IMG/VR virus record: IMGVR_UViG_3300012931_000019
Span: 18,154 to 82,153 of that record
DNA length: 64,000 nucleotides
Strand: one strand, 5' to 3'
Origin: a virus
Positions 9,089-58,733 of the stretch are shown here, piece after piece. Under the pieces are notes generated by a model, which saw only the letters and a program-made list of their open reading frames with translations, was not told where the DNA came from and did not search any database. Every line of letters begins with the position of its first letter. Position 1 is the first letter of the stretch. The position numbers were made by a program, and so were the translations under genes.

Positions 9089-10027
9089 TTAAGATTTTAA
9101 ATTTTTAATATCCTCATTTACTTTATTTAAACTCAATTTTATTTCTTCTGAATTATCTTTTAATTGTTGCGCGTGGATTAAATTTTTTTGTTTTTTCAAT
9201 TCAATAATCTTCAAACCATTATTTATATATTTAAAGATAATATGTTCTTCTTCGTTCTTTGGATTGGATGTATTCAATATTTTATAATATCTCTTTTTAG
9301 GAATACCTCTTACAGTCATATTGATTAATTTCAAATCAGATAATCTTTTAATTGCAGTTGTCTGTGCACCTTCTTGTAATCCACATGAAAGTTCTAGATC
9401 ATTAATAGTACAAGAAAACTCTTCATATTGTTTATTTGAATTAGTTTGATACCAATGCCATTTATTTATTAATTCACAATAGATTATTGTTTCATTTAAT
9501 CCCAATGAATGAATTAATGGTTTTTTCAACATAATATACCCACCAGTTTCAAAATCTATATCTAATAAAATATCTCTAATGTATTCTGCATTAAATTCTT
9601 CATGTTTTATATATTTTCCATCATGATCCTGAATGTTATAAATAACTTTTTCTAACATTTCTATATGATTTTTATCGATAATATTTTGATTGAATATACC
9701 TTTTCTGCCTTCCAGCATTTCATACAAAGTATATTCAATATTATATCCACTATTAATACTGTCATATTCTTTTATGTATTTATCTTCATATACTAATAAA
9801 ATTAAATGATTTAAAGAATGTCTAAAATTATTTTTGAGTTCTTCTATTATTTCAAAATCAAAGTTTTCTTCTCCATATTCATTCCAATCATCCTGCAATT
9901 TATATGAATGATGATTACTACTGTTTAAATCGTTTTTATGCTCTTGCCATCTTCTCTCAATATTTAAACTTTCTCCTATGTAAACTTTATTATTGATGTT
10001 ATTCGTAATTTTATAAATTCCTTGCAT
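9089..10027 (-). CDS. GIY-YIG nuclease domain fused to winged-helix domain
   Basis: Residues 1-65 form a GIY-YIG nuclease domain: GIYKI at 3-7, VYIGES at 15-20, then NIERRWQEHK with the conserved arginine, and a YGEENFDFEIIEEL block with the acidic residues. The middle is a linker (70-150). Residues about 165-260 look like a winged helix of the replication-initiator type (SCTINDLELSCGLQEGAQTT followed by KRLSDLKLINMTVRG). A lysine/glutamate-rich coiled coil ends the 312-residue protein. ATG 10027 follows AAGGAGAATATAG. It is encoded just after the initiator-like gene and probably shares its mRNA. A homing-type nuclease that borrowed an initiator domain, or an initiator with a nicking domain, are both possible. 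Confidence 0.7.
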   Translation of the reverse strand: MQGIYKITNNINNKVYIGESLNIERRWQEHKNDLNSSNHHSYKLQDDWNEYGEENFDFEIIEELKNNFRHSLNHLILLVYEDKYIKEYDSINSGYNIEYTLYEMLEGRKGIFNQNIIDKNHIEMLEKVIYNIQDHDGKYIKHEEFNAEYIRDILLDIDFETGGYIMLKKPLIHSLGLNETIIYCELINKWHWYQTNSNKQYEEFSCTINDLELSCGLQEGAQTTAIKRLSDLKLINMTVRGIPKKRYYKILNTSNPKNEEEHIIFKYINNGLKIIELKKQKNLIHAQQLKDNSEEIKLSLNKVNEDIKNLKS

Positions 10028-11494: not shown

Positions 11495-12780
11495 TTTGAC
11501 ATACTCCCCATGCTTAAAGGCAGGAGATTCCGGTATCTACAAGATTAGCCTACAAGCGCAGGTCTTATGATCTCTACTCCTAGAGTCGATGCCCCGACTC
11601 TTTCTATATTTAGTGCCGCATTATAATCTCTATCATGTATTGTATTGCAACATTCACAAGTCCATTCTCTGTCTGATAATGTGAGTTTTTCATTAATTGT
11701 TCCACATACATGACACGTTTTACTTGAAGGATAAAATCTAGGAATTTCAATTACTTGAGACCCATTTTTAGTGCATTGGTGTTTCAAGATATTGACAAAA
11801 CTGCTATGACTTAAATCAGATATTTTCTTTCCCCATAATCTCTGCATTGCTTTGATATTCAAGTTTTCAATACATATTACCGCATATTCTACTGATAATT
11901 GCGATGCTAGTTTAAAATGAAAATCTCTTCTCTGATCGGCAATTTTCTTATGTGTTTTTGCCAATTCACGCTTCGCTCTCTTATAATTATTTGATCCTTT
12001 CTTTTTCTTCGATAGTTTTCTATTTAACTTTTTTATTTTATTTTGACTATGTTTGAAAAATTCTGGTGATTTTATATCATTGTTATCTGATGCTTTCAAA
12101 AATGTCTTTAGTCCAAAATCATACCCGACAATTTTACCTGTTCTTGGTATAACTTCGTTCATTTCTTTTTTACATACTATAATAATATAAATATCTCCCA
12201 AAACATCTCTTTTGATTGTTATAGTTTTTACAGTTCCTTCAATTTCTCTTGATTTTGAATACTTATATATTTGTTTGCCAATTTGTATCTTATTCCCATC
12301 AAGTAGTCTATATCCGGTTTGAGTTAAAGTATAAGACTTATATTTCTTTACTTTCTTAAATGAAGGAGGTGCTGATTTAATACCATGCTTTTGATTACGA
12401 AAAAATAACTTATATGCCTTGTCAATACGCTCCACTATATTTTGTATAGTCTGTGAATTTAACTCATTCCAATAAACATATTTTCTTAATTTCTTTAATT
12501 TAGTTATATGCTTTTTAAGCTGATAATAATTGAGACTTTTACCATATAATCTATAATACCGTTTATGTAAGGCAATACAATGATTATAAATACGAGCAGA
12601 TATATTAATTTGTTTGTGTATATTTTTATTCTTTTTGTTTTTATATAGTTTGAATTTATAAGAAACCATACTACCTTACACCTCCTTCATATGTCCTTTT
12701 GATTTTTCTATGTCAAGTATTTTGTGCCTTATATTCCCATAGCTGAAGCTAGGGGTTTACGGCACGTTCGGCTAAAGGCA
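11495..12780 (-). mobile_element. IS200/IS605-type element carrying TnpB only
   Basis: The right end has the typical hairpin ACTCCCCATGCTTAAAGGCAG near 11502-11522 and the left end the typical CCCATAGCTGAAGCTAGGGG hairpin at 12736-12755 inside GTGCC/GGCAC (12724-12765). Both ends are of the kind cut by Y1 transposases (TnpA), but no TnpA gene is present, so the copy depends on a transposase elsewhere. Exact ends are estimates. The 3' end of tnpB and the right end should hold the omega RNA scaffold. Confidence 0.8.
11545..12669 (-). CDS. tnpB: TnpB RNA-guided nuclease
   Basis: The 374-residue protein is full length for TnpB (about 350-410). RuvC-like residues are all present: D184 in GYDFGLK, E268 in VICIENL and D348 in HDRDYNAALN. 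Between them lies the zinc finger C319-x2-C322 and C338-x2-C341. The N-terminal helix-rich half (RIYNHCIALHKRYYRLYGK) is the wedge/REC region. ATG 12669 follows GGAGGTGTAAGG. The family cuts DNA at sites chosen by an omega RNA made from the element's right end, next to a short TAM motif, and keeps the element in place after excision. Nothing suggests inactivation. Confidence 0.92.
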   Translation of the reverse strand: MVSYKFKLYKNKKNKNIHKQINISARIYNHCIALHKRYYRLYGKSLNYYQLKKHITKLKKLRKYVYWNELNSQTIQNIVERIDKAYKLFFRNQKHGIKSAPPSFKKVKKYKSYTLTQTGYRLLDGNKIQIGKQIYKYSKSREIEGTVKTITIKRDVLGDIYIIIVCKKEMNEVIPRTGKIVGYDFGLKTFLKASDNNDIKSPEFFKHSQNKIKKLNRKLSKKKKGSNNYKRAKRELAKTHKKIADQRRDFHFKLASQLSVEYAVICIENLNIKAMQRLWGKKISDLSHSSFVNILKHQCTKNGSQVIEIPRFYPSSKTCHVCGTINEKLTLSDREWTCECCNTIHDRDYNAALNIERVGASTLGVEIIRPALVG

Positions 12781-17947: not shown

Positions 17948-19369
17948 ATGAGTAAGAAAAAAGATAAGATAAAAATCTCTTTTTTGGGAAATTCCAGCAA
18001 TGATGTTACTGGTAGTTTATATCTTATTTCAACACCAAATAAAAACATTTTGTTGGAATGCGGTATGGTTCAAGGTTTATCTATTATGGATGACTGGAAA
18101 GAGAATGCTAAATCATTTCCATTTAAACCTAAAAATATAGACTATTTGTTTATTAATCATGCTCACATTGACCATTTTGGGAATACAGGAAAATTAGTAC
18201 GAGATGGATTTGAAGGAAGAATCATTACAACAGAAATAACTAAAGCATTAATGAAACCTATGGGGTTAGATTCCGCTAATATAATTCGAAAAGATGCAGA
18301 GTATCTTTCAAAGAAACGTGGAAAGCAGATATATCCCTTTTATACAGAAGACGATGTTTACAATATGCTCAATATGATTGACACATATGGTTTTGATGAA
18401 ATTTACGAACTTGATGATGAAATTAGTTTCCGTTTTTTACATAATTCACATATAATTGGTGCTTGCCAGCTAGAACTATTTATTAAAAATGAAAGTGGTA
18501 GAGTTGACAAAATTTTGTATACAAGTGATCTGGGGAAAATTAAGTCTCAGAATTATTATGTTGATGAATTTGAAAAATGTAAAAATGCTAATCTTGTAAT
18601 CAGCGAGTGTACATATGGAGCAACAGATAAAAATATAAAATTTGATAGAAATAAAGATTTAGAGAAATTAAAAACAACTATTGAACAGGTTTGTAATGTT
18701 CAAAAGGGGCGTTTACTTATACCCGTATTTTCTTTAAGCCGTTGCCAACAAATTATGACTGATTTATATATGATGTATAAAGACGATCCTAGTTTTAATA
18801 CAAAAATTATCGTAGATAGTCCTTTAATATGGGAAATCAACAAGGTTTATAAATCGGTATTGCAAGGTGACGATTTAAAATTATTTGAAGATGTTTGTAA
18901 CTGGGAGAATATTAAATTTATTAAAGATTACAATGAAAGTAAATTATGTGTGGCAGACACTTCAAGTAAAATTATTTTGTCAAGTTCTGGCTTTTTAAAC
19001 AAGGGAAGAGTCACAGAATATGCTAAGTCAATTATAAAATCATCTAAGGATCATATTATATTTGTTGGCTATACTCCGGTTGATAGTTTAGGTGGCAAAA
19101 TTAAAAATGGACAAAAATCAGTAACAATTGATGGTATTTCAATAAAAAATAGATGTACTTCTAGTTCATTAAATTCGTATTCATCTCATATTCAGCAAAA
19201 GGAATTATTAAATTATTTAAAAGGGATATCTGCGGATAAGATTATTTTAGTTCACGGGAATATGGATGGGAAGATTGAATTTAAAAATTTACTAGAAGAA
19301 GAACTTAGTAAAATAAATAGAACAACGAGAGTGGTCGTGGGATCAAAAGGAATGACTACTACTTTATAA
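17948..19369 (+). CDS. Beta-CASP metallo-beta-lactamase-fold nuclease
   Basis: The 473-residue protein has motif 2 HAHIDH at residues 71-76, later metal ligands in HNSHIIGACQ and YTSDLGK, a beta-CASP block (GRLLIPVFSLSRCQQIM and SSSGFLNKGRV) and the C-terminal SSHIQQKELLNYL and LVHGN motifs. Every active-site element of the CPSF-73/RNase J-related beta-CASP family is present. Such enzymes cut or trim RNA with two zinc ions. ATG 17948 follows AAAGGATTATGAT. Its place after the phage polymerase suggests processing of phage transcripts, which is inference. A DNA substrate cannot be excluded. Confidence 0.88.
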   Translation: MSKKKDKIKISFLGNSSNDVTGSLYLISTPNKNILLECGMVQGLSIMDDWKENAKSFPFKPKNIDYLFINHAHIDHFGNTGKLVRDGFEGRIITTEITKALMKPMGLDSANIIRKDAEYLSKKRGKQIYPFYTEDDVYNMLNMIDTYGFDEIYELDDEISFRFLHNSHIIGACQLELFIKNESGRVDKILYTSDLGKIKSQNYYVDEFEKCKNANLVISECTYGATDKNIKFDRNKDLEKLKTTIEQVCNVQKGRLLIPVFSLSRCQQIMTDLYMMYKDDPSFNTKIIVDSPLIWEINKVYKSVLQGDDLKLFEDVCNWENIKFIKDYNESKLCVADTSSKIILSSSGFLNKGRVTEYAKSIIKSSKDHIIFVGYTPVDSLGGKIKNGQKSVTIDGISIKNRCTSSSLNSYSSHIQQKELLNYLKGISADKIILVHGNMDGKIEFKNLLEEELSKINRTTRVVVGSKGMTTTL

Positions 19370-48281: not shown

Positions 48282-48296
48282 AAGGAGTTGGAAGTA

Positions 48297-49373
48297 TTGG
48301 CAAAATCTAAAGTAGTTAGAGTAAAATATTTTACACCGGAAAGAATAGCATTAATAAATCCAGATAATTTAGTATTATATGAAAAGTATTTAATGTCAAA
48401 TATAATTAAGAATAAGGATGTTGAACAGACAACTTTTAAAACTTATAAGAACTCAATGCAACAGTTTTTAGTATATCTTGCAGAAAAATGGAATAATATT
48501 GGTTTATATTCTCCTGAATTCTTTGAATCCGCAGTTGATATAATGGAAGGTTTTATGGCATTTTGTGTAAATACATTAAAAAACAATAAGAAGGTTATTA
48601 ATACAAAAGTATCTTCGGTATCAACTTTTTATCTTTGGAGTATGAAAAGGAAATTGGTAGATAGACATCCTTTTGATAAAAAACTTGATAGAATGAAAGG
48701 TGCAAGTGAAGAAAAGATTATTAATTCATATTTTCTAACTGATGAACAGGTAACAGAAATTAGGCGTGGTTTATTAACCGATAAAAAATATGATATTCAA
48801 GACCAATTAATTTTTGAACTGTTTTTAGATAGTGCAAACAGAGTTGGGGCGCTAGACAAAATAACACTATCATCTATGGACTTGGAAAATATGGTTTTCA
48901 ATGATATTAGGGAAAAGAGAGGTTATAAGGTCGAAGTAGCATTCTCTGAAGCAACGAAGGATATTATTAAAGAATGGCTTGAAATGAGAAAAGACATGGA
49001 TAACCTTGACATTGATGCAATATTTTTAACTCGATATAATGGAAAATGGAACAAGATGACATATGGCACGATTCAAGATAGGATAAAACGTATTGGATAT
49101 ATTATTGGTTTAGAAGATTTTCATTGTCACTGTATGAGAAAAACAAAGCTTAACGATATTTATGTTAAAACTGGCGATCTTGCTCTTGCCGCAGAGTATG
49201 GAAATCATAAATCTACAGAAACGACAAGACAAAGTTATATAAAGCCAAAAAGTAAAACAGAAATCAGAGCTAAAATTAATGAGATGATGCAAAAGAATAA
49301 TGAGATAAAGGTAGAAATCGTTGACGAACCTATTGAAATTCCAACAGAATCATCTTCAGAAGAAAATCTTTAA
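48297..49373 (+). CDS. Second tyrosine recombinase
   Basis: TTG 48297 has AAAGGAG 9 bases upstream and is preferred to TTG 48288. The 358-residue protein has a SAM-like N-terminal domain (VEQTTFKTYKNSMQQFLVYL) and catalytic residues R182 (DSANRVGAL), H278-x2-R281 (HCMRKTK), H304 (YGNHKSTETT) and Y314 (RQSYIKP). All are canonical, unlike the first recombinase, where HxxR is HxxK. It lies next to an RNA gene and tRNA-Gln; tRNA genes are frequent attachment sites. The C-terminus is acidic and disordered. Confidence 0.85.
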   Translation: MAKSKVVRVKYFTPERIALINPDNLVLYEKYLMSNIIKNKDVEQTTFKTYKNSMQQFLVYLAEKWNNIGLYSPEFFESAVDIMEGFMAFCVNTLKNNKKVINTKVSSVSTFYLWSMKRKLVDRHPFDKKLDRMKGASEEKIINSYFLTDEQVTEIRRGLLTDKKYDIQDQLIFELFLDSANRVGALDKITLSSMDLENMVFNDIREKRGYKVEVAFSEATKDIIKEWLEMRKDMDNLDIDAIFLTRYNGKWNKMTYGTIQDRIKRIGYIIGLEDFHCHCMRKTKLNDIYVKTGDLALAAEYGNHKSTETTRQSYIKPKSKTEIRAKINEMMQKNNEIKVEIVDEPIEIPTESSSEENL

Positions 49374-49437: not shown

Positions 49438-50100
49438 TGTACTAAAGATTATCCTTTCTCTTGTACAATATCTTTTTTTGTTCTGATTTGTAGTAAGGCT
49501 TGCTATTAGTGTAGTGAGCCTTACTAAAGCAAAATAAATGGCATAGAAGGAGTATTTTATCGGTTTTATATCGACTAAAATAAAAAATAAGTTTTAGATT
49601 TGTATTATGGCTTAACGCCGCCACGAAAGAGATTTAAATTATCTGAGGTTTGGAAAAGGTAGCCAACACCACACCTAGAAGCTTAGTCGGACGAATGTGC
49701 CGATAGTGCGGAATCACAGAAACTTCCCTATATTTTCAATGATGCATTGAATAGTACGCTAGGGTACGATAAAGAATGTTAGGAGATGCAAGAGTACCGT
49801 CTTGCCAGATAATTTAGATATAAAGATAGGTCATTTGTGACCATGTCCATTAATTGCAATAATGGGGTTGACAGAATACGCCTACTACTGGCGTAATAAA
49901 TAAGTAGATTTTAGGTCTTTGAAGGCCATGTTGGTATGTTGGGCGAACTTCCCACGTGAAGTTGAGGTAGTAGACTATGACGATAGTCGAGGGTGGTTAC
50001 ATAAAATTAACAGTTCGGAAAATCTGAACGAAAGGGTAGAGAAGACAGGAGCAATGTTTTGTTAGTTTTAATGCGAAGAAAAGCCTGTCTGATACATATA
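49438..50100 (+). ncRNA. Large structured RNA next to a tRNA (ROOL/GOLLD-like class)
   Basis: About 660 bases without a frame hold at least nine short stems: TTCAATG/CATTGAA, GTAC/GTAC, GGTCAT/GTGACC, CCATTA/TAATGG, TACGCC/GGCGTA, GAACTTC/GAAGTTG, GACTAT/ATAGTC, GTTCGG/CTGAAC and GACAGG/CCTGTC (50045-50093). Local GC content is above the surroundings. It starts at a strong promoter and runs into tRNA-Gln. Large ornate phage RNAs (ROOL, GOLLD) have this size, tRNA neighbour and host range, so that class is the likely home, but I cannot score it. It could also be a new RNA family. Confidence 0.65.
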
Positions 50101-50103
50101 TGA

Positions 50104-50178
50104 TGGGACTTGGTGAAGATGGCCTAACACAGCAGGTTTTGATCCTGCCATTTCGAAGGTTTAAATCCTTCAGTCCTA
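50104..50178 (+). tRNA. tRNA-Gln (UUG)
   Basis: The 75-base cloverleaf has acceptor TGGGACT pairing with AGTCCTA (one G-T pair), a three-pair D stem GTG/CAC, anticodon stem GCAGG/CCTGC with loop TTTTGAT (anticodon TTG at 50139-50141) and T stem GAAGG/CCTTC. No CCA is encoded. It reads CAA, a frequent codon in this A/T-rich DNA. It is the only tRNA I find in the window and is likely cut from the same transcript as the upstream RNA. Confidence 0.9.
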
Positions 50179-50290
50179 GTAAATAAAGGGTGAAAATGTT
50201 TGAATTTTCATCATGTATATATAAAGTACCTTGCGGTGTATAGGTTAACCGCGTAACCCAATAGATTGAGAATTTTAACGGAACTGAAAC

Positions 50291-53933: not shown

Positions 53934-56900
53934 ATGAATGATATTTCAATTAAGATAAAAGCTATTCTAGATCAAACCGCATCAACTGGTAATATTGAAA
54001 GTCAAATCAAACAGATTCAAAAAAAGTTAGATAATTCACCTTTAAAATTAAAATTAGATGAAAATTCCATAAAAAACACATTTGATAAAGATGGCAAATT
54101 AACAAAATCTATATATAAAGTAAATGATGCTTTAAATGGTCATTACACTGTTGTGCAAAAAGCAAGCAAAGTAACAGGAGAATTAGAAACTGCACAAATT
54201 AAGTTATCTACGGCAAATGATAAAGCAGGTCAGAGTTTTTCCAATATTTTGAAAAAAATTGGGACTTGGGGTGTAGCCACTGGAATTCTGTACGGCGGAC
54301 TTCGACAAATTTCGACTGGCGTGGATTACATAATCGAACTTGATAATTCCATGAATGAAGTTCAAATTGTAACAGGATACACAAAGGAAAAAGTCGATGC
54401 TTTAGCACAATCTTATAATGAACTTGGCAAACAGATGAAGGTAACAACTTCAGAGATTGCCGCTACTTCTGCTGATTTATATAGACAGGGTTTAACTGAT
54501 GCGGAAGTTACTGATCGAATGAAAGGTATTATTGAATATGCTAAAATTTCAAGTATTTCATTAGAAGATAGTAATAAGATTATAACTGCAACGGCAAATG
54601 CCACTGAACGTTCAATTGAGAATATAACAGATATTTTCGCTTATTTAGGCGATACAACTGCATGAAAAACCTCGTGCCTTATAATGGTAACATTATAATG
54701 ATAATTTAGTGAACTATATTACTCATAGGTGTATAATCAACATTTTGTAATAGTAGGAAATGACTATGAATGATTATGCTAACAGGGGAGCCTAAGTTAG
54801 AAATAATATGGTAATCCTGTGCCAAGCTTCGTAATTGAAGAAGGTTAAACGACTATCCCATAGGGGAGTACATTGGAAGATGAGTTGCCAATGGAAGTGC
54901 TAAACAACCATAATATTTGGTTGATGATATAGTCTACACACATAGAAATATGTGATAAAAGTGCAGGTGCAGATGAAATTGGCGAAGCTCTTCAGAGAGT
55001 AGCTTCTGCCGCAGACAATTCAAATTTAAGTTTAGAAAAAACAAGCTCATGGTTTAAATTGTAGACCCTTAGTATAGTAATATACTAATGCAAAGTTGGC
55101 TTTTATCGGAAAAAAACCTATAGGCAGGTCAATTCCGAGGATAAGATTAGTATTGTTAAAATATTAAAATCCGTAACGACTATGTACTGTAATAGTAATA
55201 TTATGGTCACGCCAACCTTCCTAATTATAGGAAGATGATATAGTCTGAACTGCATTTATAGCCTAAAAAATAAAGATGCAGAAGTAGGAAGAAACTCCTA
55301 TTCGCCATATTTTATATGGTCAGTACCTAATTTTAGGGAAAGTAACAGACTGAGCAACAATTTCCAGCGTTTCAAGAGAAACGGCTTCCACGATCGGACG
55401 AAGCTTAAACTCAATTATCAGCCGATACGAAAGTATAAAAAAGACAGGATTTTCTAGTGAAGATAGCACTCAATTAAATGATGTGACAAAAGCTCTTTCT
55501 TCAATTGGTATAAATCCAACTGTAAATGGACAACTTCGCGATTTGGGAGTAGTCATGGATGAAGTTGGAGCGAAATGGAACACATTAAGTAAAAATGAAA
55601 AAGCTTATATAGCGACTACAATGGCGGGAACCTATCAACGTAATAGATTTATAACCCTAAAATTTGGGGCTTTAATAGCATAATACATAAACTATTAAAG
55701 AAAATTTTCTCTAATAAATTTACGAAACTCCAGAAGTGGACAACGTAGTGGAAGTTTACACACCAGCAGAGACTAAATGAGAAAACTTCATGTTAATGAA
55801 GATGTAATAGTCCGAACTCATGATATAACTTAATCATGAAACATGAGAAGTATGAAGAAATTCATATTCGCCTAGTAATAGGTTATAAAGTAACAGATTG
55901 AATGAATAATTACGATGATAGTTTAAAAAATTATGACAATGCTCTTAATGCGGCTGGTCAAACACAAAAGAAATATGATACCTATCTTGAATCAAGTCAA
56001 GCTCACATAGACGAACTCACTACATCTATGCAAGGGATGTGGCAAGATACAATGTCTTCTGAGCAATTAAAAACTTTAATTGATTTTGGAACAGGAATTG
56101 TAAATATTATTGATAAAATCGGATTATTGAATATTGCGGCAGTAGCATTATTTGGTATATTAGGTGGTCGTGGTATATTAACAACTGTAGTTAATTTAAT
56201 TCCTCTTACAAAAAGTTTGGCTTTAAATATTGGTATTCTTGCATCTAATATGGGAGTGTCTGAAGCGGCGGCTGTTACTTTAGCCAAATCCCTTTCAGTT
56301 ATGGTTCCTGTAGCCGCTATTTTAGCTGGAATAGCTATAATAGATTATTTAACAGAAGCTTTAGATAGGCAAAAAGAATCTGTAGCAGATTTATCAAACA
56401 AAATTCAGACCTTAACATCTGAACGAGATTCATTAAATCAAAAAATGTCAGAGGGTGCATTAATCGATTCAGAATCAAAAAGATTGGAATTACTTAATGC
56501 CGAAATAACTGCAAATCAAACGCTTTTGAAACAAGAAGACGAAAAGTTGTATAAGATGGAACAACAGTCTAATCTTCCCACAACTAATCAAATGTCTTGG
56601 ACTAGTTATTATACAACAGATAGCGGCTTAAAAAGTGCTGTAGATGAATACAACAGTCTTAACGAAGCAACTGCAACTACTCTTGAACAGCAAGACGAAA
56701 TGAAAACGCGTAAAGCTGAACTTATTAAAGAAATGACTACGGAAGTAGGACAGCTTCAAGCTCATATTGATTTAGGAACAGAGCTTACAGATGTAGATGC
56801 CAAACGGCTTGATCAGATGAATGCAATTATCGAAGCCTACAATAAGCAAACCGAGGCCGAGAAAGCCGCTGACGAAGCCGCAACTGAAACTCAGACAGTA

Positions 56901-58733
56901 CAGCAAAAATTAGCGGAACAATTTTCTAATGGTGAAATTTCTTTAAAAGATTATATATCTAAATTAAATGCTTTAAAAGCATCGTCTAAAGAATATGAAG
57001 TGCAAGCATACAATTTAGGTGAAGCTAGTACATTTTTAGCTTCAATTTCCGATAAAGTTACTAATGCTCAGTCTCTTACCGAAGATGAAGTAAAACAATT
57101 GACATCTTTATATCCTGATTTACAAGGTGCTATATATGAAACGGCAGATGGATGGTCAGTAGAAAAAACGGCGGTTGATTTATTAAATACTAGTGTCACA
57201 TCATTACAAACAGCTTACATGGATGCTCAAAATGCAATGACAGAATTAGCGGCTATTTCGGTTGGTGAAAGACTTAATATTACTGATACAGAATTAGCGG
57301 CTGTACAGTCTGTGGCTGATGCATATGCGACTCTTGCCGGAAAGAAAAGTAGTACTGGAACGGGATATACGGAACATGAATTAAAAATGCTGAATATCAA
57401 CGATCCAACGGTAATGAATACGCTTGCATTAGGTAAGGCTAGAGAAACGATAAACGCTTTGAAGAAGAATTTAGGAAGTATTAATACTAAAGCATTGGAT
57501 TCTTCTTCTTCCAAATCTTCCTCCGACGAATATGACTGGTTTGACGAAATGCTTTCCACTTCCAAGCAATACATAGAGAATCGTGATTTATATGGTGATT
57601 GGGATAAATATGGGGATTCAGCAGTATCAGCATGGGAAAGAATCAAAAAATATACCGAACAGTATTATAAAGATGGAAAAATTAGTTATGAGAAATATGC
57701 TGATGTAATTAATGATATTGATCAATCTTTATATACAGCTAAGAAAGACGCAATCCAGTCAGCCTATGAAGCGGAAGTCGAATACCAACAAAAGCTAATA
57801 GAATCCCAAAAAGACGCTCTTGAAACAGAACTAGAAGCAACGGATGCTCAATATGATAAACACATTGCAAAACTTCAAAAGAAATTAGACGCATTAAAAG
57901 ACGAAGAAGAAGAACAGGACAAACTTCTTGCCATCGAAGAAGCCAGAGAAGATTTAGAAAATGCAAAATCTGATACATCATATCGGGTTTATAGCCAAGC
58001 AACGGGATGGCAATGGACTTATAATCAATCTGCGGTAGATGAAGCGCAAGAAGCTCTAGATGACGCTCAAGAAGAATATGACGACTATGAGGCAGAAGCC
58101 AAACTTGAAAAACAAATATCTAAATTAGAAAAAGCCCAGAAAAAGAATGAAGAAAATATTAATGCTCAGATTGATGATCTTGATGCGCTTGCTGAAACAT
58201 GGGAAAACAGTTTAGATATTAGTGCAGATACAGCAACGTATACAAGTCAATTAGATGCATTGTTAGCTGTTGAAAACTCCAGTTATGCTAGTAGACTCGA
58301 AGCGGCACAAGCTTTTGCGACGGCATATAAGAAAGCATTAAATGGAATAGGACAAACTTCAACGTCTTCAACAACCACAACTACTTCAACCACATCCACA
58401 ACATCAGCAGATTCAACTAATGTTAATACTTATGGTGAAGGTGGACATGTGAATACACCTCAATTAGCGGTAGTCGGAGATACAAGCGAATGGATTATAC
58501 CAGATTCAAATATGCCTTCATTTGTAGATTTAATAGGTAGTAATATAATGAATAATATGTTGAGCAACATTACAGCATCTATGCCATCTATTACTCCAAT
58601 AAATCGTAATACATCAACTGACAGTAGTTCTCATATGACTATTCAGAACATGACTATTCAGGCAAATAATCCCAATCAGTTTGCAAATAAAATGAAAAAT
58701 CTTGTAGCAATTACAGGAAATATGACTAATTAA
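53934..58733 (+). CDS. Tail tape measure protein, split by three group I introns
   Basis: Exons 53934-54663, 54964-55054, 55353-55658 and 55901-58733 join in frame into about 1319 residues. The joined protein reads GDTTA-SGADEIGEALQ, TSSW-LATISSVSRETAS and NRFITL-MNNYDDSLKNYD, the standard TP901-type tape measure core, including ATTMAGTYQRN. ATG 53934 follows AAAGGAGAAGTG. The rest is long coiled coil, hydrophobic segments near 55.9-56.4 kb (VALFGILGGRGILTTVVNLI; AILAGIAIIDYLTEAL), and a GEGGHVNTPQLAVVGD end. It sets tail length and helps DNA entry. Splice sites are predicted from U-G rules and frame. Confidence 0.85.
54664..54963 (+). ncRNA. Group I intron 1 in the tape measure gene
   Basis: 300 bases. 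5' exon ends ACTGCA-T, intron ends with G, and the exons join to restore the reading frame. The P7 pairing GACTA (54851-54855) with TAGTC (54930-54934) sits in the usual ACGACTATCC and GATGATATAGTC contexts. No endonuclease gene is inside, so it is a mini-intron. Its 3' end differs from introns 2 and 3. Confidence 0.8.
55055..55352 (+). ncRNA. Group I intron 2 in the tape measure gene
   Basis: 298 bases. Exon ends TGG-TT and the intron ends AGTAACAGACTG. P7 is GACTA (55178-55182) with TAGTC (55241-55245, GATGATATAGTCTGAAC). The 3' part (GAAGAAACTCCTATTCGCC, then AAAGTAACAGA) matches that of intron 3, so the two share descent. No reading frame inside. Confidence 0.8.
55659..55900 (+). ncRNA. 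Group I intron 3 in the tape measure gene
   Basis: 242 bases. Exon ends ACC-CT, intron ends AAGTAACAGATTG, and exon 4 gives A-ATGAATAAT. P7 is GACTA (55771-55775) with TAGTC (55808-55812). The GAAGAAATTCATATTCGCC block is shared with intron 2. No reading frame inside. Confidence 0.8.

What the first reader, a model, noticed from the sequence alone, without database searches (positions are those of the whole stretch)
53934..58733. Three group I introns packed into 1.2 kb of the tape measure gene
The tape measure frame is broken at 54663, 55054 and 55658, yet removing 300, 298 and 242 bases at T|...G| boundaries restores one continuous TP901-type protein. Each insert has a GACTA/TAGTC P7 pairing. 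Exons 2 and 3 are only 91 and 306 bases. None of the introns has an endonuclease; introns 2 and 3 share their 3' domain, while intron 1 differs. Three endonuclease-free introns so close together in one phage gene are rare to my knowledge and suggest serial invasion of the most conserved part of the gene.
Basis: partly seen in the sequence, partly recalled or inferred. Interest (0 to 1): 0.85.

Follow-up and report, generated by a model that had tools for sequence, protein, structure and literature searches.

The report
Phage tail-ruler gene with three introns
This bacterial virus gene for the protein that sets tail length is cut by three small self-splicing RNA introns within 1.24 kb, and related viruses carry similar introns in the same stretch, so it is a striking but not unprecedented case of repeated intron invasion.

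Summary
Removing 54664-54963, 55055-55352 and 55659-55900 joins four exons into one 1319-residue TP901-type tape measure protein. An intronless relative (L002) is 74% identical across residues 101-420; exon 2 differs from it by 1 residue but 15 synonymous codons, so the short exons are under selection and splicing very probably occurs.

All three inserts have group I anatomy (P1 with U.G at the 5' splice site, P3, P7, P8, P9, terminal G). Rfam scores are 61, 40 and 22 bits. A covariance model built only from introns in other phages' tape measure genes finds introns 2 and 3 at E 9e-16 and 1e-10, ending exactly at the predicted 3' splice sites. None carries an endonuclease gene.

The claim of rarity fails. 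Vibrio phage ICP1 has a tape measure gene with three introns, proven by RT-PCR. In IMG/VR roughly a quarter of the related genes found are broken in the same domain, some two or three times. Introns 2 and 3 belong to different intron clades, and each has its closest sampled relative in another phage's tape measure gene at a different site. Best reading: stepwise invasion of a hotspot, with endonuclease loss inferred. Splicing itself is untested.

The parts
53934..54663 (+). exon 1 of the tape measure protein (TMP) gene
   Evidence: TIGR01760 and PF10145 on the joined protein
54664..54963 (+). group I intron 1 (300 nt, no endonuclease gene, P7.1/P7.2-like insert after the P7 5' strand)
   Evidence: Rfam RF00028, 61.2 bits, E 1.5e-14; helices; 69% over 158 nt to a TMP intron in L029
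54660..54677 (+). intron 1 P1: exon GCAU 54660-54663 with GUGC 54674-54677, U.G at the splice site
54851..54934 (+). intron 1 P7: GACUA 54851-54855 / UAGUC 54930-54934
54964..55054 (+). exon 2 (91 nt)
   Evidence: 30 of 31 residues identical to intronless L002 despite 15 synonymous codon differences
55055..55352 (+). group I intron 2 (298 nt, no endonuclease gene)
   Evidence: Rfam 39.8 bits, E 4e-8; model R1 86.6 bits, E 8.8e-16, ending exactly at 55352; 76.6% over 188 nt to the ORF-bearing TMP intron of L006
55051..55067 (+). intron 2 P1: exon GGUU 55051-55054 with GACC 55064-55067
55095..55216 (+). intron 2 P3: GUUGGC 55095-55100 / GCCAAC 55211-55216
   Evidence: changes on both strands in L007a, L069a and MaeS
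55178..55245 (+). intron 2 P7: GACUA 55178-55182 / UAGUC 55241-55245
55353..55658 (+). exon 3 (306 nt, length divisible by three)
   Evidence: 86 of 102 residues identical to L002, 39 synonymous codon differences
55659..55900 (+). group I intron 3 (242 nt, compact, no endonuclease gene)
   Evidence: Rfam 22.4 bits, E 0.006; model R1 60.9 bits, E 1.4e-10, ending exactly at 55900; 92% over 53 nt to the 5' end of a TMP intron in L021
55655..55669 (+). intron 3 P1: exon CCCU 55655-55658 with GGGG 55666-55669
55705..55785 (+). intron 3 P3: UUUUCUC 55705-55711 / GAGAAAA 55779-55785
   Evidence: changes on both strands in L029a and L028c
55771..55812 (+). intron 3 P7: GACUA 55771-55775 / UAGUC 55808-55812
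   Evidence: GACUU/AAGUC in L028c
55901..58733 (+). exon 4 (C-terminal 943 residues and the stop)
   Evidence: uninterrupted

Best explanation
A phage tape measure gene carries three autocatalytic group I introns that self-splice from the pre-mRNA, by the usual two-step guanosine-initiated reaction, to give one 1319-aa protein. Each arrived separately in the conserved TP901 domain, which is an intron hotspot in related phages. Introns 2 and 3 belong to intron families whose members in other phages often carry a homing-endonuclease-like ORF, so the window's copies are most simply read as forms that lost, or never had, the endonuclease. Shown: exact boundaries, anatomy, kinship, hotspot. Inferred: splicing activity, order of arrival, endonuclease loss.
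For: The four exons join into one open frame. Intronless homologs cross all the sites. Exon 2 is 30/31 identical to L002 with 15 synonymous changes, and exon 3 is 86/102 with 39. P1, P3, P7, P8 and P9 can be written in all 14 TMP introns compared; P3 differs at nearly every position yet stays paired (strands picked by eye). Model R1, built without the window, finds introns 2 and 3 at E 8.8e-16 and 1.4e-10 with exact 3' ends. The sister of intron 2 (L006) holds a 302-aa ORF, and members of the intron 3 family (L021, L029a) hold 599- and 215-aa ORFs. Other phages show insertions in the same domain.
Against: No RNA data exist. Introns 2 and 3 score below the Rfam gathering cut-off (39.8 and 22.4 against 50 bits). 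The contig is a metagenomic assembly without reads. Endonuclease loss rather than primary absence is inferred. Intron trees rest on about 300 columns with partly weak support.
Confidence: 0.9

Rival explanations
1. The inserts are decayed, non-splicing introns and the tape measure gene is dead or expressed as separate fragments (exon 1 product of 284 aa, exon 4 product of 943 aa).
For: Exon 1 and exon 4 are each open, exon 4 has an in-frame ATG at 55902, and introns 2 and 3 score below the Rfam cut-off.
Against: Exons 2 and 3, which would be lost, are the best conserved parts, with many synonymous changes. The core helices and the splice-site pairings are intact.
Confidence: 0.05
2. Introns 2 and 3 arose by duplication of one intron inside this gene, rather than by separate arrivals.
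For: They share 77 nt at 78% identity and one model finds both.
Against: In both trees intron 2 groups with L006 (96/88 and 97/95) in a clade separate from that of intron 3. Their P1, P3 and 5' halves differ.
Confidence: 0.05
3. The introns moved between sites of tape measure genes (ectopic spread, for example reverse splicing guided by the internal guide sequence) rather than by homing into identical sites. This is compatible with the best explanation and concerns only how the introns arrived.
For: The closest sampled relatives of introns 2 and 3 lie in tape measure genes at other sites. Intron 3 family members at residues 292, 315 and 376 follow CCU or CCUU targets. L176 holds two members of the clade at two sites of one gene.
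Against: The sample is biased to tape measure genes; introns of an nrdD-like gene and of other genes fall in the same broad clade. A matching P1 target is needed for splicing whatever the route, so it does not identify the mechanism. Same-site sisters also exist (MaeS and L069a).
Confidence: 0.3
4. Assembly chimera of unrelated fragments.
For: The source is a metagenomic virus contig; one related locus (L019) looks chimeric after the domain.
Against: Insert ends coincide to the base with group I splice sites and the reading frame is restored three times.
Confidence: 0.01

Closest known systems
Vibrio cholerae phage ICP1 tape measure gene (PMC10448857)
   Same: Tape measure gene with four exons and three introns; endonuclease content of the introns varies between isolates; splicing proven by RNA-seq and RT-PCR.
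   Different: ICP1 introns carry one or two HNH-3 endonuclease genes; the window's three carry none and sit within 1.24 kb. No sequence comparison of the two genes was made here.
Staphylococcus phage Twort orf142 (tail tube gene), Landthaler and Shub 1999, as cited in PMC11878797
   Same: Three group I introns in one tail gene; exon skipping reported.
   Different: Different gene. The original paper was not held, so intron sizes and endonuclease content were not compared.
Bastillevirinae DNA polymerase and terminase genes with two or three group I introns (PMC11878797)
   Same: Several introns in one phage gene; exon skipping in phage SIOphi.
   Different: Replication and packaging genes; mean intron length 802 nt.
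Breaks in tape measure genes of L006, L007, L008, L021, L028, L029, L069, L176, L181, L184, L198, L225, L228, L230, L233 and Microcystis phage MaeS
   Same: Insertions in the same TP901 domain, many with group I anatomy and kin of introns 2 and 3.
   Different: Mostly other insertion sites, and several carry LAGLIDADG, HNH or Vsr/DUF559-like ORFs. Not every break was shown to be a group I intron.

Membership tests
Group I intron (RF00028) | Covariance-model match | tested here: met
   Intron 1 61.2 bits, over the cut-off of 50. Introns 2 and 3 at 39.8 and 22.4 are under it, but model R1 from other phages' introns finds them at E 8.8e-16 and 1.4e-10.
Group I intron (RF00028) | P1 with a U.G wobble at the 5' splice site, and G as last intron base | tested here: met
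   All three.
Group I intron (RF00028) | Core helices P3, P7 and P8, supported by covariation | tested here: met
   Complementary in 14 of 14 introns, with many differences on both strands of P3. Strands were chosen by eye; the P3 of intron 1 disagrees with Rfam's own alignment and is the least certain.
Group I intron (RF00028) | Self-splicing with exogenous guanosine | not testable with these tools
   Needs RNA work.
Mobile (homing) group I intron | Endonuclease gene in the intron | tested here: not met
   No such ORF in the three introns; no HNH hit in the phage contig. One GIY-YIG ORF lies about 44 kb away on the other strand.
TP901-type tape measure protein | TIGR01760 / PF10145 domain | tested here: met
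   118.1 bits (cut-off 28.8) and 97 bits (cut-off 33.2) on residues 1-420 of the joined protein.

The most novel reading that the evidence does not exclude
The conserved tape measure domain is a landing strip in which group I introns move to new sites of the same gene, guided by short P1 and P10 pairings and without a resident endonuclease; in addition, skipping of exon 3 (306 nt, in frame) could give a second protein lacking 102 residues.
Probability: 0.2. Interest if true: 0.65.

Novelty: new member of a known kind. Interest (0 to 1): 0.42.

Why it matters
It adds an endonuclease-free three-intron tape measure gene to the ICP1 case and shows, across metagenomic phages, that this domain is repeatedly interrupted at about ten positions within some 160 codons. 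That gives a natural series for asking how group I introns reach new sites: same gene, known empty sites, several intron families, with and without endonucleases. It also warns that tape measure genes of such phages are easily annotated as fragments.

Tried and rejected
DNA search of the introns against phage records gave short matches only: intron 1 to many phage introns, intron 2 best to a TMP intron in Microcystis phage MaeS, intron 3 nothing convincing. The idea that the intron 3 family lives only in tape measure genes was rejected: of 20 places with its J3/4-P4 motif 5 flank a TMP, an nrdD-like gene (L026, named from reading its ORFs) shares its P2 loop, and non-TMP introns enter the clade. 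The intron 2 core 19-mer is common: of 128 places only 2 flank a TMP. L019/L020 were first counted as interrupted but look like contig chimeras. R1 finds no further convincing copy in the phage contig and none in the other 195 genomes drawn from the family of the L021 genome, under strict filters. The second tree has a cruder cut of some 3' halves than the first and should be trusted less. The fraction of intron-bearing genes (about 10 of about 40 after merging near-identical contigs) was counted by eye.

Full report
Observation. Deleting 54664-54963, 55055-55352 and 55659-55900 joins 53934-54663, 54964-55054, 55353-55658 and 55901-58733 into a single frame of 1319 residues with only the terminal stop. 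The joined protein is a TP901-type tape measure protein (TIGR01760, E 4e-34; PF10145, E 2e-27).

The gaps are insertions, and they are spliced or the gene is dead. L002, an IMG/VR phage contig, encodes residues 101-420 without interruption at 74% identity; L003, L004 and L005 and the Psychrobacillus phage Perkons protein also cross all three sites. Against L002, exon 2 has one residue change and 15 synonymous codon changes, exon 3 has 16 residue changes and 39 synonymous ones. Purifying selection on exons of 91 and 306 nt that can only be used after splicing argues strongly that splicing happens. This is the best functional evidence available without RNA.

They are group I introns. Rfam RF00028 gives 61.2, 39.8 and 22.4 bits when 2.2 kb is searched; in the full 64-kb window only intron 1 passes. 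For an independent test I delimited introns in other phages' tape measure genes by the break in the protein, removed their ORFs, aligned the 3' halves of nine and built model R1. R1 finds intron 2 at 86.6 bits (E 8.8e-16) and intron 3 at 60.9 bits (E 1.4e-10), and both matches end exactly at the predicted 3' splice sites 55352 and 55900; intron 1 scores E 0.29. In a table of 14 introns, P1 ends in a U.G at the splice site and P3, P7, P8 and P9 are complementary throughout (three P8 or P9 entries have strands of unequal length and were not scored), while P3 changes at nearly every position. Examples: intron 3 UUUUCUC/GAGAAAA, L029a UUCUCUC/GAGAGAA, L028c UCUUUUC/GAAAAGA; intron 2 GUUGGC/GCCAAC, L007a AUCCAGC/GCUGGAU. 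Short P10 pairings can also be written by reading the sequences (intron 2 GCAA/UUGU, intron 3 AAU/AUU, intron 1 AGG/CCU). I chose these strands by eye, so the table supports but does not by itself prove the structure. The P3 of intron 1 differs from Rfam's alignment and is the least certain.

A hotspot. Scanning tape measure genes found by protein similarity, about 10 of about 40 distinct genes have breaks in the same domain (counted by eye after merging near-identical contigs). Others came from intron-motif searches and from phage MaeS. Insertion sites, in residues of the window protein, are near 216, 240, 244 (intron 1), 257, 274 (intron 2), 289-292, 299, 315, 366 and 376 (intron 3). In the genes checked the frame is open for at least 289 codons upstream and about 800 or more downstream of the cluster, so the introns are confined to the domain as far as the contigs reach. 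Several genes hold more than one: L007 two, L069 two, L225 two breaks, L028 and L176 apparently three, and L029 two with a 20-nt exon between them; joining its exons gives an open frame. Not every break was proven to be a group I intron.

Kinship. Introns 2 and 3 share 77 nt at 78% but sit in different clades. Intron 2 is sister to the intron of L006 (96/88, 97/95), which lies at residue 366 and carries a 302-aa ORF; intron 3 falls with introns at residues 291-292 and 315 of other phages. The 5' end of intron 3 is 92% identical over 53 nt to the intron of L021, a Clostridium MAG, at residue 292. So both nearest sampled relatives lie in the same gene but at other sites. Sampling favours tape measure genes, and introns of an nrdD-like gene and of other genes enter the broader clade of intron 3 when added, so I do not claim a gene-specific family. 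Intron 1 is of a third type with a P7.1/P7.2-like insert and resembles the second intron of L029 (69% over 158 nt).

Mechanism. Most likely each intron self-splices by guanosine attack at the 5' site and ligation of the exons, giving full-length protein. Relatives with LAGLIDADG, HNH or Vsr/DUF559-like ORFs suggest arrival with an endonuclease, followed by loss; the alternative, arrival without one, is open. Exon 3 is 102 codons long, so skipping it would keep the frame; exon skipping is on record for Twort orf142 and phage SIOphi (PMC11878797). This is untested here.

Prior art. ICP1's tape measure transcript has four exons and three introns, proven by RNA-seq and RT-PCR, and the authors name the tape measure gene as frequently interrupted (PMC10448857). 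Twort and Bastillevirinae have genes with two or three introns. The window case is therefore a new member of a known kind. Its distinguishing points are that all three introns lack endonuclease genes and that they are packed into 1.24 kb.

Noticed in passing
window 49638-49813 and 50104-50179: A skipping-rope RNA (44.7 bits) and a tRNA lie upstream of the tape measure gene; L008 also has a skipping-rope RNA, a tRNA and a HEARO RNA.
   Followed up: no
window 11545-12669 (-) and 9089-10027 (-): An IS605 OrfB/TnpB-like gene and a GIY-YIG ORF lie close together on the minus strand; no group I match was found near them.
   Followed up: partly
window 48288-49373: Phage integrase family gene, suggesting a temperate phage.
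   Followed up: no
window 17948-19369: Beta-CASP metallo-beta-lactamase-fold protein with an RMMBL domain, a likely RNA nuclease.
   Followed up: no
L166 and L176: The phage sequences here contain in-frame TAG codons in tape measure or intron ORF frames, as if TAG were read as an amino acid.
   Followed up: no
L029 5762-5781: A 20-nt exon between two group I introns in a tape measure gene; the joined frame is open.
   Followed up: partly
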